Of a DNA stretch of 64,000 nt, positions 29,792-35,095 are shown piece after piece. The notes under the pieces are model-generated. The model made no database searches. It saw only the letters and a list, made by a program, of their open reading frames with translations, and was not told where the DNA came from. The first letter of the stretch is position 1. Each line of letters opens with the position of its first letter. The DNA comes from Gimesia aquarii (GTDB lineage Bacteria; Planctomycetota; Planctomycetia; Planctomycetales; Planctomycetaceae), in assembly GCF_007748195.1 (NCBI RefSeq), contig NZ_CP037920.1:3287501-3351500 (forward strand), given 5' to 3'. The position numbers and the translations under genes were made by a program.

Positions 29792-31067
29792 CGAACTGAA
29801 AGAAGTTACAGCGCTCGAGAATATCGATGCGTATCTGGACGGTGAAGATCTTTCGCTGGAAGAGGCGCAAAAGTTAGAGCAGTGGATCAAGTCAGACAGC
29901 GACAATGCTGATCAGGCCTTTCGTCGTGTATTTCTGCATTCGTATCTTAGACAGCGGTTCCAGGTCCGATCGATTGGTGAAGCACAAGTCAAAGAGATGC
30001 AATCGCGTCAAAAAGAACCGTTGGTTCTACCTTCTGAGTCTGAAATCGAAGTCAAATCCCGTCAGACGACACCACAAAAACAAACACGAAGGCAGAAACG
30101 ACATACACTGCTGACTTGGCGTTGGTTCCTGATGATCGGAATAGGAATCGTTTCTACTATTAACCTGGCAGTTTTGTTTATCAAAGATTTTCAACTTCCC
30201 TATGACGAAGACAAAGCGTTTGAAACTCTTTTTCAGCAGTCTGATTATGCTAAAAAAACGTTTCTGATGGCGCGCATCGCGGCTCAACCTTTTTTATATG
30301 AAGGATTTGATTATTCAGAAGCACTTCTGGATGAGAAGGAATCCAAAGGTGCCACCGGTTTGAATGGAGGGCAGGGATGGTCTGGGCCCTGGATCGACAA
30401 GGGACCCAAGTACTCTACCATTATTCATGACCCGAAACGACAGACTTCGGGTGGTAATGATATGCGGTTGTTTGGTTCCCTCGGATTTTCTGATCAATAT
30501 GGGAATATGCTCTTAACAGAAGGTGGCCAGTTTCGTTCGGGGGGGCCTGCAGAATCTGTGACGGTTCGTCACATTGATCTACAACAGGTCCCTTATGCAT
30601 TATCCGACGAAAAGGGTTTTGGAGCCGACGGCGAAACGGTCTGGCTCAGTTTCATGGCGCAATCCTACGATAATGCAGGTGAGGGACGCTATGCTTATAT
30701 CGATTTTGGAAACGAAGAATCGAGCCTGCGAATCGGAAAGTTGGCTTCCGCTCCCAGAGGAAACTGGGCTGCCGCGGGACAAGTCAATGGAACCGAATAT
30801 AATACGACTTCGAGTGACGTGCTTTCGGGGCAGGTTGTCCTGATTGTGGCTCGGATTCTCTTTCGTCCCGGTGCTGAAGAAGTTGCCATGTGGCTGAATC
30901 CCCCTCTCAACCACATTCCCGATCTGGGAGATGTGGACTTGCGACTGATGACGCCGGATCTGAGAATCGAGCGTGTCAAAATTGTCAGTCAATACTCAAC
31001 TGACTTCGATGAACTGCGCGTGGGAGTCTCTTTTGTCGATGTGATTCCAGCCCCTGATGAAAACTGA
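29778..31067 (+). CDS. membrane partner of the ECF sigma factor (putative anti-sigma)
   Basis: This protein of about 429 residues has an acidic N-terminal helical part (ENIDAYLDGEDLSLEEAQKL), similar to the N-domain of FecR-type regulators, and one membrane helix at about residues 113-135. A large outside domain follows, with jelly-roll-like segments (GFDYSEALLDEKESKGATGL, then DIGNEE-like strands). No FecR core motif is seen. The start is the ATG at 29778 inside the sigma gene; a GTG at 29769 is also possible. Position and topology suggest an anti-sigma role, which is inference. Its last 11 bp overlap the Cys-periodic small gene. Confidence 0.72.
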   Translation: MSETNELKEVTALENIDAYLDGEDLSLEEAQKLEQWIKSDSDNADQAFRRVFLHSYLRQRFQVRSIGEAQVKEMQSRQKEPLVLPSESEIEVKSRQTTPQKQTRRQKRHTLLTWRWFLMIGIGIVSTINLAVLFIKDFQLPYDEDKAFETLFQQSDYAKKTFLMARIAAQPFLYEGFDYSEALLDEKESKGATGLNGGQGWSGPWIDKGPKYSTIIHDPKRQTSGGNDMRLFGSLGFSDQYGNMLLTEGGQFRSGGPAESVTVRHIDLQQVPYALSDEKGFGADGETVWLSFMAQSYDNAGEGRYAYIDFGNEESSLRIGKLASAPRGNWAAAGQVNGTEYNTTSSDVLSGQVVLIVARILFRPGAEEVAMWLNPPLNHIPDLGDVDLRLMTPDLRIERVKIVSQYSTDFDELRVGVSFVDVIPAPDEN

Positions 31068-31422
31068 GTGCATTACACAGAATGTGGGTTTCGTTCGTTC
31101 TGATCTCCTTTCTCTGTACCGTATCAGGCCCAGATGTGCAGCAGCAGCTATTAATGTCGCTGCTGGGTGGACAGCTGGTTGTGTTGCTGCAGCCGCTGCT
31201 TGCGCGCTGGTGGCAAATAACAACTTCGATACTTGTGTCGGTAATCAAAATATTCTTTACGTCAACTGTATTAATAAAGCTACCGGAGATTATAATGATG
31301 CGATAGCAGCAGATGCTGCAGTGGCTACTTGTTATGCCGATGCAGATAGTGCATACGCTGATTGTCTAACTGCCGCAACCGATGCCTACAATGCTTGTCT
31401 TGATGCATGCCCTGTGGAATAA
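31057..31422 (+). CDS. small Ala/Cys-rich protein with 11-residue Cys/Tyr repeats
   Basis: This 121-residue protein overlaps the end of the membrane partner gene by 11 bp and is followed by a terminator hairpin, so it is the last gene of the sigma transcription unit. It has a short N-terminal part, then an Ala-rich stretch (CVAAAAACALVA), then a repeat C-x7-Y-x2 with Cys at 60, 71, 92, 103 and 114 and Tyr at 68, 79, 100 and 111. A last Cys is at 118. An 11-residue period fits a helical hendecad with Cys and Tyr on fixed faces. No known family is recognised; an exported structural or metal-binding peptide is possible. The start has no strong ribosome site and may depend on coupling. Confidence 0.55.
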   Translation: MKTECITQNVGFVRSDLLSLYRIRPRCAAAAINVAAGWTAGCVAAAAACALVANNNFDTCVGNQNILYVNCINKATGDYNDAIAADAAVATCYADADSAYADCLTAATDAYNACLDACPVE

Positions 31423-31593: not shown

Positions 31594-31923
31594 GTGAATT
31601 CACCATTTTTGCTGATTTTCATGGCCATGTGTCCTTTTTTACTGCTTTCCCTATTTATTTCCTGGTGGAGCAGCAGACTGCAAAAAACGAGTACAGGTCA
31701 GAATGGCGCCACTAAAATCCCTACTTATAAAACTGTCATCGTTTATATAGTAGCGGTTCTCATCATAATATTCCTACCACAGCCTCTCTATAATTTTCTA
31801 ATCCCTAAAATAGAACCAGCTGTTCCTCAAAACTTGCAACCTCCAGCACCATTAGCACCCACCGAGCATCATCCTGCTCCTGATGCAAAAAAGAGTACTC
31901 CTTTACCAAACAACATCAAATAA
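31594..31923 (+). CDS. small two-span membrane protein with Pro-rich tail
   Basis: This 109-residue protein starts with GTG at 31594, preceded by a strong GGAGG 6 nt upstream. It has two membrane helices (about residues 4-23 and 48-68) joined by a polar loop. A C-terminal tail rich in Pro and Ala (PAVPQNLQPPAPLAPTEHH) ends in a short basic segment. It is separated from the sigma operon by a terminator and from the IS element by about 230 bp. No family is recognised. Confidence 0.6.
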   Translation: MNSPFLLIFMAMCPFLLLSLFISWWSSRLQKTSTGQNGATKIPTYKTVIVYIVAVLIIIFLPQPLYNFLIPKIEPAVPQNLQPPAPLAPTEHHPAPDAKKSTPLPNNIK

Positions 31924-32166
31924 GGTCCATATTGCAAAGTAATTTACTGCTTGCCTTTAACTTAAGTCATACTGGATAACTGAAACGTTTACGGAGCGTT
32001 TCATAATAAGAAGGCAATGAAGTGGCCTGCTACATCACCCATCTGAGAGAGCGGTGATCTACAATCAGATTCTCAACTTTAGCTCTGCCACTCCTGATAG
32101 TGGATACTGACACTGATCAGATAGTCTCTGTTTCAAAGTCTAGAGAAATTGACGTGATACTATGAC

Positions 32167-32180
32167 CGCCGTGTCAAGCC
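32167..32180 (+). repeat. left subterminal inverted repeat of the IS
   Basis: CGCCGTGTCAAGCC, exact reverse complement of 33451-33464. Confidence 0.88.
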
Positions 32181-32251
32181 CCCTCCCTGAAACGCTAAAA
32201 TAAGTGTTCCAGTTTTTCCTGACCTGAACACTCTATTAAGGATGCAAAATT

Positions 32252-33257
32252 ATGTGGCATATTGGTATCGATCTTCATCGGAGAACGGTTGTCACGTCCG
32301 CGGTCAATGATTCTGGAGAAGTGGTCTCTCCTGTGACAATCGAATGTCGGAACACAAAAGCCATTCTCAAATTTCTACAACCACTCAAACCGTTCCGAGC
32401 GGTTGTCGAGTCCACAGCAACTTATCGTTGGTTATATAAGTTACTCTCTGAGGAAGGAACCATCCTGTTGGTCCATCCAGCGAAATTACGCTTGATGATT
32501 CAACGGCGCGCTAAAACAGATCGTTTGGACTGTCAGCTCCTAGCGAACCTGTTACGGATCAACCAGATCCCGCTCTCCTACATTCCCCCCAGACGATTAT
32601 CAGCAACTGAGAGAGATTACACGCCACCGCGCCCGCCTGGTCCGTGACAGAGCCCAGGTCAAGATTGGTTTACGGTCATTGTTGGCGCGTCATAATCGGG
32701 ACGCCCCCTATCGCATCCCTTTTGGTCCTGGAGGGATCAAGTGGTTCCGGGATCAATCATTTTCGCCCATTGACGATCTGATCCGTGATGAACTGATCAC
32801 GCGACTTAATCACTTTACTGAGCAAATTAATGCGATCGATCAACAACTGGAAGAACTACGGGAGTCTTTTCCCCAGGTAGAAGCATTACTCGATATTCAC
32901 GGAATCGGACTGTATTCCGCTTTGGTGATTGTTGCTGAACTGGGGGAGATTGAACGATTTCGCTCTGCGAAACAGGTGGGTGCTTATGCAGGATTGACAT
33001 CAAAAGTGAACCAGTCTGGAGGTCACTGTTATTACGGTTCCATTACCAGACAAGGACCACCCTGGTTACGTTGGGTGCTGACCGAAGTCGCGATTCACGC
33101 GATCAAACGCTATGTTCCCTTGAAAAGGTTTTACACCCGAATTCGTAAGCGATCTGGAGCCAAGAAAGCCTGGGTTGCTGTAGCTTGTAAACTTGCGGAA
33201 ATTTCCTGGAAACGATTATTCCGCTGGCAGATTGAGCACTCAGTACAGTTGGCTTAA
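32252..33257 (+). pseudogene. IS110-family DEDD transposase, frameshifted
   Basis: The first part gives the RuvC-like domain with the four acidic residues Asp7 (IGIDLHR), Glu53 (VVEST), Asp90 and Asp93 (AKTDRLD). The second part, in the next frame, gives the Transposase_20 domain with LDIHGIGLYSALVIVAELG, the AYAGLTSKVNQSGGH core containing the likely nucleophile Ser, and GPPWLRWVL. The frames join if one C is removed from the run of six C at 32585-32590: the product then reads SYIPPDDYQQLREITRHRAR and has about 334 residues, the normal length. The break is thus a single-base expansion in a homopolymer. It may be a real inactivating mutation, a sequencing error, or slippage. Confidence 0.88.
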
Positions 33258-33450
33258 AAAGAGAAAAGACGAATTACGCGAAAGCAGTGAGTTCGGCCCG
33301 CTGTGGGGGCTGGTGAGAGAAGCTCTGCGCCGTTGACGTGAATGGGCTGCTCACTGATTGAATTGTAATCTGCGCGACGGCGTTTTGCCGGACGGCGCGA
33401 ATGGGTGCCTAGTTTCGCGTAAAAACAAATTTAGAATACAATGGAACGGA
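33258..33450 (+). ncRNA. candidate bridge RNA in the IS right end
   Basis: This stretch between transposase stop and right inverted repeat is strongly structured. CAGTGAG (33285-33291) pairs with CTCACTG (33350-33356), and GCCC (33296-33299) with GGGC (33344-33347). An apical hairpin covers 33312-33331. Between these stems is a symmetric internal loop with 12 nt on each side (33300-33311 and 33332-33343). The 5' side contains GTGGGGGC, the reverse complement of the right flank at 33476-33483. The 3' side contains TTGACGTGA, identical to 32149-32157 at the left end (left flank plus core plus one IS base). A second structured part follows (CGCGA at 33373-33377 with TCGCG at 33415-33419). Known biology: IS110-family elements encode such RNAs, in the right end for IS1111 members. 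Its exact ends and promoter are not determined. Confidence 0.68.
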
Positions 33451-33464
33451 GGCTTGACACGGCG
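33451..33464 (+). repeat. right subterminal inverted repeat of the IS
   Basis: GGCTTGACACGGCG, exact reverse complement of 32167-32180. Confidence 0.88.
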
Positions 33465-33625
33465 TAGTCATGGGTGCCCCCACGAATGTCTCGAGTCGCT
33501 GGAAACAGTAATGATTTGTTCTTTTAAGATTGAGTTGCTTGGTGTGAAGTGGAACCATAGAATGGAAAGCAGTATTTGTTTGTGGGATTCCAGACGTTCA
33601 TTTATCGCTTCCGATTGGAAATTAG

Positions 33626-35095
33626 ATGAGACTGCTTTGCATTAGTTGGCTTGTTTGTGTGTTCTTAGGTTTACCTCAGTTCTCAGAGAAAGTAAATGCG
33701 GCGGAAAATCAATATAACGTGTTATTTATCATTTCAGATGATCTGACAGCGACCGCGCTTTCCTGTTATGGCAACAAAGTCTGTCACACTCCCAACATTG
33801 ATGAAATCGCTGCGAAAGGAACACGTTTTACACGCGCTTATTGTCAGGCCACCTATTGCGGACCCTCTCGGGCTTCGTTTATGTCGGGCTATTATCCACA
33901 TGCTTCATTGGCCTTTGGTTATGTGAGTCCGCGTTCCTATATTGGTGACCGGCCCACCTGGTCACAACACTTCAAGAACAATGGGTATTACACTGCTCGG
34001 GTGAGCAAGATTTATCATATGGGAGTACCCGGAGATATTGAAAAAGGAAGCAACGGCACTGATGATCCTGCGTCGTGGACCGAACGCTTTAATAGCCAGG
34101 GACCGGAATGGAAAGCGCCTGGAAACGGCGAAACACTGGAAAACAATCCTGATGGAAAGAAACCTGCCGTTGGTGGAAACACATTTGTCGTTGTGGAAGC
34201 GAACGGGGATGATCTCGTGCACTCCGACGGAAAGACAGCAAAAAAAGCAGTGGAGTTAATTGAGAAACATAAAAACGAACCCTTCTTTCTGGGCGTAGGT
34301 TTTGTAAGACCGCACGTGCCGTTTGTCGCTCCTAAATCTTATTATCCTCCATTCCTGCCTTACGGAAAACATATTCTTCCCAAAAAGGTGAAAGGAGACT
34401 GGGATGATATTCCGAAGTTCGGCATTAATTACAAAACGAGTGTGAACATGAAGATGGATCTCCGCCGACAGAAAAAAGCGGTCGGTGGTTATCTGGCCTC
34501 GGTCGCTTATATGGACGCGCAGGTCGGAAAATTACTGGATGCTTTGAAACGTGCGGGGATTGAGGATAAGACGATTGTGATCTTTACCAGCGATCATGGC
34601 TATCACCTGGGTGAACATGATTTCTGGGCTAAGGTCAGCTTGCATGAAGAGTCGGCGGCGGTTCCGTTGATTATCAGTGTGCCTGGCAAGAAACCGGCTG
34701 TCTGTCATTCTCTCACCGAGTTGCTTGATTTGTATCCGACGATCACAAGCTTGTGCGGCTTAAAAATTCCGAACGGAATTCAAGGTAAAGACCTTTCTGG
34801 CATGCTGGACGATCCAAGTGTGAGTGTGAGAGATGCTGCCTTTAGTGTGGATCCGCGAAATAAAGGGAATCGAGGCTTTCTCCTTCGCGATGACCGCTGG
34901 GCCTTCATTCAATATAAAGAAGACGCTTCCGAGGGTGTGGAATTGTACGACATGCAAAATGATCCGCAGCAATTCACAAATCTAGCAGAAAAACTCGAGC
35001 ATCAGTCCAAAGTCGCTGAATTTAAGAAACGACTTGCGAAAAAGCTGAAAGCAATCCGCACGAATGACCTGGGTCATACCTACACGAAACAATAA
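33626..35095 (+). CDS. secreted sulfatase (iduronate-2-sulfatase-like, Cys-type)
   Basis: This 489-residue protein has a signal peptide (residues 1-26), the metal motif SDDLTATALSCYGN at 37-50, and the signature CGPSR at 78-82 with Cys78 as formylglycine precursor. GVGFVRPHVPFVAPKSYY and FTSDHGYHLGEHDFWAK follow, which are typical of iduronate-2-sulfatase-like enzymes. It should act outside the cytoplasm on sulfated glycans. It lies 150 bp after the IS element, so its promoter region is directly next to the insertion. It is convergent with the Gfo/Idh gene 21 bp away. Confidence 0.92.
   Translation: MRLLCISWLVCVFLGLPQFSEKVNAAENQYNVLFIISDDLTATALSCYGNKVCHTPNIDEIAAKGTRFTRAYCQATYCGPSRASFMSGYYPHASLAFGYVSPRSYIGDRPTWSQHFKNNGYYTARVSKIYHMGVPGDIEKGSNGTDDPASWTERFNSQGPEWKAPGNGETLENNPDGKKPAVGGNTFVVVEANGDDLVHSDGKTAKKAVELIEKHKNEPFFLGVGFVRPHVPFVAPKSYYPPFLPYGKHILPKKVKGDWDDIPKFGINYKTSVNMKMDLRRQKKAVGGYLASVAYMDAQVGKLLDALKRAGIEDKTIVIFTSDHGYHLGEHDFWAKVSLHEESAAVPLIISVPGKKPAVCHSLTELLDLYPTITSLCGLKIPNGIQGKDLSGMLDDPSVSVRDAAFSVDPRNKGNRGFLLRDDRWAFIQYKEDASEGVELYDMQNDPQQFTNLAEKLEHQSKVAEFKKRLAKKLKAIRTNDLGHTYTKQ

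What the first reader, a model, noticed from the sequence alone, without database searches (positions are those of the whole stretch)
32149..33483. Internal loop in the IS right end matches both flanks of its own insertion site: a candidate bridge-RNA target-binding loop
Seen: 33285-33356 folds into an outer stem, a 12 x 12 nt symmetric internal loop and an apical hairpin. The 3' side of the loop holds TTGACGTGA, identical to 32149-32157: five bases of left flank, the three-base candidate core GTG, and the first base of the IS by my boundary. The 5' side holds GTGGGGGC, the reverse complement of 33476-33483 at the right end. So one side pairs with one strand of the left target half and the other with the opposite strand of the right half. 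Known: bridge RNAs of IS110 elements (described for IS621) use one loop with two guides in this antiparallel way. Inferred: the site before insertion was TTGAC-GTG-CCCCCAC, read in the reverse sense by the RNA. Two independent matches, both placed at the expected loop sides, are hard to explain by chance, but boundaries are inferred.
Basis: partly seen in the sequence, partly recalled or inferred. Interest (0 to 1): 0.86.

Follow-up and report, generated by a model that had tools for sequence, protein, structure and literature searches.

The report
Jumping gene's RNA matches its target
A small jumping gene (IS1111 type) carries a folded RNA whose loop spells out both halves of the place where it sits, the tip of another jumping gene, so it most likely finds its target by RNA pairing; this works as in known relatives, and the element is a new member of that kind.

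Summary
The window carries a 1320-bp IS1111-group element (32155-33474). Its long non-coding region, downstream of the transposase gene, folds into a bridge/seek-type RNA (about 33274-33422); 18 of 30 tested pairs show compensatory changes across nine related elements. The target loop matches both flanks: 6/6 left, 7/8 right. None of 40,000 random sites from the window matched the two loop sides as well. Loop and flanks change together in relatives. The predicted empty site TTGACGTGCCCCCACGAA occurs exact and uninterrupted three times in one congeneric genome, as the right tip of an IS3-type element. A sister lineage with a changed guide sits in the left tip of such an element; an uninterrupted copy of that tip was found too. 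Corrections: the shared core is TG, not GTG; the trailing A of the nine-base match is invariant and uninformative; a second (donor) loop is likely at 33362-33407; this copy's transposase frame is broken. Three of 13 right flanks do not fit (L046, L004, L024). New member of a known kind: no new mechanism, but a clean natural case of guide and target changing together.

The parts
32149..32154 (+). Left target half TTGACG
   Evidence: identical to loop 33333-33338; exact in uninterrupted copies in G037
32155..32161 (+). IS left terminal extension TGATACT (7 bp, begins with core TG)
   Evidence: TGATAC conserved in the left ends compared; 7-bp rule in PMC11187229 (passage)
32162..32180 (+). Left subterminal inverted repeat ATGACCGCCGTGTCAAGCC
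   Evidence: pairs with 33451-33471 except for an extra TA
32252..32647 (+). Transposase, N-terminal part (DEDD domain PF01548); frame broken near 32585 by a one-base length difference in a homopolymer run
32679..33257 (+). Transposase, C-terminal part (PF02371, with QSG motif)
33274..33283 (+). RNA outer stem, 5' arm
   Evidence: L138, L076 and L052 have different but complementary arms (read by eye)
33285..33356 (+). Target-binding stem-loop of the bridge/seek RNA
33303..33310 (+). [quoted passage not shown]
33333..33340 (+). [quoted passage not shown]
33362..33370 (+). Putative left-end donor guide ATTGTAATC
   Evidence: same place as better-matching guides in L052 and FR_14; only 5 of 9 here
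33371..33399 (+). Donor-loop inner hairpin
   Evidence: helix 3: 100% of cells paired, 2 of 5 pairs with double changes; helix 4: 88.9%, 1 of 3
33401..33407 (+). Right-end donor guide ATGGGTG, identical to element end plus core 33470-33476
   Evidence: present in all 9 aligned RNAs; equals the right end in W, L008, L052, FR_14
33413..33422 (+). RNA outer stem, 3' arm
33451..33471 (+). Right subterminal inverted repeat, with extra TA at 33465-33466
33472..33474 (+). IS right terminal extension GGG
33475..33476 (+). Core TG on the right (target copy)
33477..33486 (+). Right target half CCCCCACGAA, within a 24-nt stretch (33474-33497) that is 87.5% identical to an IS3-type right end

Best explanation
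This is an IS1111-group insertion sequence in a planctomycete lineage. The region downstream of its transposase gene encodes a bridge/seek RNA. [quoted passage not shown] A second loop probably pairs with the joined element ends. The transposase bound to this RNA recombines the circular element into the tip of an IS3-type element (TTGACG-TG-CCCCCACGAA). Shown here: anatomy, fold with compensatory changes, guide-flank match, co-change in relatives, uninterrupted targets. Inferred from published relatives: transcription, RNA-protein complex, circular intermediate, recombination chemistry. This copy probably cannot move by itself because its transposase frame is broken.
For: PF01548 and PF02371 in the window's two frames; intact relative P0001 has both, passes NCBIfam 'IS110 family RNA-guided transposase' (218 bits, cut-off 140) and matches PDB chains of ISCro4 and IS621. 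RNA fold: 92.5% of cells paired, 18 of 30 pairs with double changes, shuffle mean 9.1, 0 of 500 as high. Guide-flank matches: W 6/6 + 7/8; L006 5/6 + 8/8; L008 and L018 4/6 + 7/8; five FR_14 copies 4-5/6 + 7-8/8; L052 4/6 + 6/8; L138 5/6 and L072 4/6, left only. Permutations, one row per lineage: left 28 of 36 against mean 15.5 (3 of 720 as high), right 29 of 40 against 17.0 (1 of 120). Predicted 18-nt empty site exact three times in G037, at an IS3-type end. TTGACATGCCCCCTTTAACCGAA uninterrupted in L199 (genome G025), where L018 carries the same two halves around the element.
Against: L046, with the loop of L018, fits its right flank only 3/8; L004 (deletion remnant) 2/8 right; L024 1/8 right, its right end may belong to other DNA. 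The left fits of 4/6 are modest one by one. The window's 5' donor guide fits only 5/9 without a bulge. No expression data. No syntenic empty site for the window's own insertion: the best relative (G026) matches only to the right. The transposase frame is broken. The 193-nt region folds no better than many shuffles (34 of 200). Rfam gave no match in 31900-33700 at E up to 1.
Confidence: 0.93

Rival explanations
1. Target choice is made by the transposase protein (or by the IS3 end structure), and the RNA matches by chance or for another reason.
For: Within the genus, W, L006, L008 and L018 all sit in TGAC[G/A]TGCCCCC, so a protein preference cannot be excluded from these copies alone.
Against: FR_14 elements with 40-50% identical transposases sit in an unrelated target (GGGCG[A/C]C-TG-T[G/T]CCACAC) that their own loop matches; window and sister lineages differ in the right guide as their targets differ (AC versus TT after CCCCC).
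Confidence: 0.04
2. The loop is a relic that once copied flank sequence, or the RNA is mainly a regulatory or terminator hairpin and guides nothing now.
For: This copy's transposase frame is broken, so the RNA here may be inactive.
Against: Double-sided compensatory changes keep the stems while guides vary; members with an intact frame and the same architecture exist (L018, L046).
Confidence: 0.03

Closest known systems
IS1111-group elements with seekRNA (ISEc11, ISPa11, ISKpn4, ISPst6; PMC11187229)
   Same: RNA from the region downstream of tnp, subterminal inverted repeats, 7-bp and 3-bp end extensions, top-strand match 5' of bottom-strand match
   Different: Other host lineage and target; here the RNA is predicted only, and the right inverted repeat carries two extra bases
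IS621 / IS110-group bridge RNA (PMC11208160 passages; PMC11208158 listing only)
   Same: Two internal loops, each with two guides that meet at a dinucleotide core
   Different: IS110-group RNAs mostly lie upstream of the gene, and their guides are in the opposite order; core CT in IS621, TG here
IS4321/IS5075 (IS1111 group; [quoted passage not shown] title seen as a reference in PMC11187229)
   Same: Inserts into the terminal repeat of another mobile element
   Different: Host element here is an IS3-type IS rather than Tn21
ISEc21 (IS110 family; PMC11187229 section 12, passage)
   Same: Uses IS3-family members as target
   Different: It targets the transposase coding region, not the terminal repeats

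Membership tests
IS1111 group | DEDD transposase with C-terminal Transposase_20 domain | tested here: met
   PF01548 and PF02371 in the two fragments; intact relative has both and passes NF033542
IS1111 group | Subterminal inverted repeats | tested here: met
   14 bp perfect, 19 bp with a two-base insertion in the right copy
IS1111 group | 7-bp left and 3-bp right terminal extensions | tested here: met
   TGATACT and GGG outside the extended repeats, read by eye, L052 likewise; rule
IS1111 group | Long non-coding region downstream of tnp | tested here: met
   33258-33450
IS1111 group | Top-strand match lies 5' of bottom-strand match in the RNA | tested here: met
   guides at 33303 and 33333
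IS1111 group | RNA is made and co-purifies with the transposase | not testable with these tools
   no expression data
IS1111 group | Circular intermediate and RNA-dependent transposition | not testable with these tools
   bench work needed
IS1111 group | Intact transposase in this copy | tested here: not met
   frame broken near 32585; intact in L018 and L046
Bridge RNA | Target-binding loop with two guides matching opposite strands around a core | tested here: met
Bridge RNA | Donor-binding loop matching the joined element ends | tested here: inconclusive
   3' side 7/7 but invariant; 5' side 5 of 9 here, 8 of 9 in L052 and FR_14
IS110 group (IS621-like) | Bridge RNA upstream of the transposase gene | tested here: not met
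   RNA is downstream

The most novel reading that the evidence does not exclude
This IS1111 lineage lives on IS3-type elements and moves between their two ends by a few base changes in one RNA guide (TGTGGGGG or CGTGGGGG for the right end, GAAGGGGG for the left), while the left guide and the donor loop stay nearly fixed: natural guide re-aiming within one element lineage, between the two ends of one kind of host element.
Probability: 0.5. Interest if true: 0.5.

Novelty: new member of a known kind. Interest (0 to 1): 0.42.

Why it matters
It shows that a bridge/seek RNA can be read from one bare genome window and then checked by prediction: the empty target was predicted and found. It gives a compact natural series (right-end guide, left-end guide, and an unrelated palindromic target in FR_14) of guide and target changing together, in hosts far from those of the named IS1111 elements in the papers seen here, and it points to relatives with an intact frame that could be tested.

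Tried and rejected
Syntenic empty site of the window's own insertion: not found. In the joined-flank search the best relative, G026, matched from 46 bases right of the core outward and the others from farther out; to the left the only match outside the own genome was 29 bases in G033. Uninterrupted copies of the target elsewhere were used instead.

Genome contigs with a single protein found nothing; with a four-protein alignment it kept the best 80 of 324. The other 65 were not read.

RNAalifold's choice for the 3' third (columns 134-139 with 191-196) was replaced by the donor hairpin that single folds and compensatory changes favour. Alignment A2 held L152 on the wrong strand and was dropped.

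The covariance model found few new elements: 6 of 170 family genomes and 8 of 392 phylum genomes had matches at E up to 0.01. Eight of these loci were read: L174 is the place already held as L138; L168, L170, L173 and L176-L179 were left out of the counts as degenerate, partial or without two clear ends.

Core GTG was rejected for TG. An uninterrupted copy of the L046 site was not found among the loci held (up to 4 mismatches).

Permutations: FR_14 entered with one copy per side, the best-fitting one (L155 left, L154 right), in both versions; L004 was in the eight-row right set and not in the eight-row left set. Rows are related, so the permutations are not true probabilities.

Literature: no paper of the held library combined IS110, bridge RNA and Planctomycet; three combined IS1111, terminal inverted repeats, target and IS3 family, of which I looked only into PMC11187229, which reports ISEc21 in IS3-family genes. 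I make no wider claim that targeting of IS3 terminal repeats is unpublished.

Full report
What is there. The window is part of a 7.4-Mb genome held as G000. Between 32155 and 33474 lies one insertion sequence. Two open frames, 32252-32647 and 32679-33257, match the two halves of an IS110-family transposase, PF01548 and PF02371. Compared with L018 and L006 the frame is broken near 32585 by a one-base length difference in a homopolymer run. A relative with an intact frame of 334 residues (P0001, from L018; 100% identical in L046) has both Pfam domains, passes NCBIfam's 'IS110 family RNA-guided transposase' and finds ISCro4 and IS621 among solved structures. The ends carry a 14-bp perfect subterminal inverted repeat, 19 bp if two extra bases in the right copy are allowed; outside it lie TGATACT on the left and GGG on the right. 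That is the 7-bp and 3-bp pattern that PMC11187229 gives for the IS1111 family (passage). The long non-coding region is downstream of the gene, as in IS1111 (PMC11187229, Results part 1 of 4 read; PMC11208160, passages).

Check of the observation. The 72-nt hairpin folds at -31 kcal/mol, z -2.28, 7 of 200 shuffles as good; its internal loop is partly filled by short helices in the minimum-energy fold and mostly open in the centroid. Longer stretches are less striking: 33272-33424 z -1.92, 8 of 200; 33258-33450 z -0.98, 34 of 200. Single-sequence folding alone is thus weak evidence. Against random 15-nt sites from the window, the exact double match in the two loop sides was reached by 0 of 40,000, and 11 of 13 by 17 of 40,000. 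The final A of the nine-base match is invariant in the nine aligned RNAs and was not counted.

Relatives. In 170 genomes of the family, own one included, DNA search found full copies in the same genus: L006 (94%), L007, L008 and L018 (87%), and protein search added L046. L007 and L008 have the same flanks on both sides, so I count them as one inherited insertion and used L008. A scan of genome contigs gave more distant relatives; those read were 37-63% identical. FR_14, a deltaproteobacterial MAG by its record title, holds one such element in five copies (L152-L155, and L156 with L157).

RNA structure. For nine RNAs (window, L006, L008, L018, L024, L052, L072, L076, L138) a structure of 30 pairs gives 92.5% paired cells and 18 pairs with changes on both sides; 500 shuffles gave mean 9.1 and none as high; sliding the partners by 1-3 columns dropped pairing to 33-42%. 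The structure was derived in part from these sequences, which favours it against the slid versions. The outer stem (33274-33283 with 33413-33422) is not in that count because its arms are misaligned; L138, L076 and L052 have different but complementary arms (read by eye).

Guides and flanks, k of 6 left and k of 8 right. W 6, 7. L006 5, 8. L008 4, 7. L018 4, 7. L046 4, 3. L152 4, 7. L153 4, 7. L154 4, 8. L155 5, 7. L156 5, 7. L052 4, 6. L138 5, no right end held. L072 4, no right end. L004, a deletion remnant in the own genome, 5, 2. L024 no left end, 1. So of 13 rows with a right flank, 10 fit at 6-8 of 8 and three do not (L046, L004, L024). Of 14 rows with a left flank, 14 fit at 4-6 of 6. 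Permuting flanks among one row per lineage gave as good a sum in 3 of 720 (left: W, L018, L155, L052, L138, L072) and 1 of 120 (right: W, L018, L154, L052, L024). With eight rows per side it was 56 of 40,320 (left: W, L006, L018, L046, L155, L052, L138, L072) and 108 of 40,320 (right: W, L006, L018, L046, L154, L052, L004, L024, so the three misses are in). FR_14 entered with its best-fitting copy on each side. Rows are related, so these are guides and not probabilities.

The empty target. In 17 genomes of the genus the 18-mer TTGACGTGCCCCCACGAA has 19 places with up to two mismatches: three exact, all in G037, eight with one and eight with two mismatches; 10 of 17 genomes have some; the backward control pattern had 9 places in all, so some of the mismatched ones may be chance. 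In 15 of the 19 the sequence goes on as TGA[C/T]A[C/T]CAG[T/C]CA after unrelated left flanks; L058, L059, L068 and L070 go on differently. This is the right end of a mobile element of about 1.29 kb that matches in 16 of 17 genomes. It carries two frames of 92 and 290 residues (L180), and the second frame of a copy beside L018 has integrase-core domains (PF00665, PF13683); the name IS3 family for this make-up is from recall. The window's right flank is 87.5% identical to that end over 24 nt and then departs. L006, in another genome (G032), has TTGACG left and CCCCCACGAA right with different outer flanks: an independent insertion into the same kind of site. No syntenic empty site was found for the window copy itself; G026 has the right neighbourhood without the element but not the left one.

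The sister lineage. L008, L007 and L018 carry GAAGGGGG in place of TGTGGGGG in the right guide and abut CCCCCTTTAACC, the left end of such an IS3-type element. Uninterrupted left ends reading TGACGTGCCCCCTTTAACCGAA (L053, genome G024) and TTGACATGCCCCCTTTAACCGAA (L199, genome G025) exist; the latter equals L018's two flanks with one TG between them, which fixes the element's limits there. So one element lineage appears aimed at one IS3 tip or the other through changes in one guide. The direction of change is not known. L046, with the same loop as L018, is an exception on the right side; its uninterrupted site was not found among the loci held.

FR_14. The five copies sit in GAGGGCG[A/C]C-TG-T[G/T]CCACAC or a sequence that differs from it at few places. 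Uninterrupted sites like it are in the same genome: five places with 1-2 mismatches, none in the backward control. Two of the five (L220, L221) read CACAGCCGAGGGCGGCTGTG, a palindrome like a REP; the other three are variants of it. The FR_14 loop (CGCGAC and GTGTGGAA) fits this target and not the IS3 tips.

Donor loop. The 3' side ATGGGTG equals the right end plus core in W, L008, L052 and FR_14 (7 of 7 each; L072 and L138 have no right end held), but both are constant, so this is consistent rather than compelling. [quoted passage not shown] In FR_14 the left end differs from L052's at one base, and the RNA differs in step at the matching position, but the neighbouring RNA position becomes a mismatch. 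I call the donor loop likely, not proven.

Mechanism, shown and inferred. Shown: anatomy, structure, guide-flank matching, co-change, empty targets. Inferred from PMC11187229 and PMC11208160, and in part recalled: transcription, RNA-protein complex, circle, recombination by the DEDD/serine recombinase.

What is new. The kind is known: RNA-guided IS1111 elements; insertion into the terminal repeats of another element (IS4321/IS5075 in Tn21, title seen as a reference); IS3-family members as targets (ISEc21, passage); natural re-aiming (ISEc11 and ISXne4, passage). New here, as far as these searches show, are the lineage, the IS3-tip target, and the left/right guide pair. Searches behind this: (listings); PMC11187229 (parts) and PMC11208160 (passages); PMC11208158 was seen only in listings.

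Noticed in passing
G000:C1:3372129-3372299 (L004), outside the window: A deletion remnant of the same element: left flank and first bases of the left end run directly into the target loop of the RNA at a shared CCGC, with the transposase gene gone.
   Followed up: partly
G535 (FR_14), L220-L224: A palindromic REP-like repeat, CACAGCCGAGGGCGGCTGTG and variants, looks like the target of five copies of a related element and also occurs uninterrupted.
   Followed up: partly
L177 and L179 (G180): Bridge-RNA-like donor hairpins with intact-looking right ends; the target loop looks degenerate, and no left end was found with the pattern used.
   Followed up: no
window 31057-31422: Open frame for a 121-residue peptide very rich in alanine with many cysteines, near the IS; no Pfam match at E up to 0.001. 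Its presence in relatives was not searched.
   Followed up: partly
L046, downstream of the element: A long stretch reads N in the held record; left alone.
   Followed up: no
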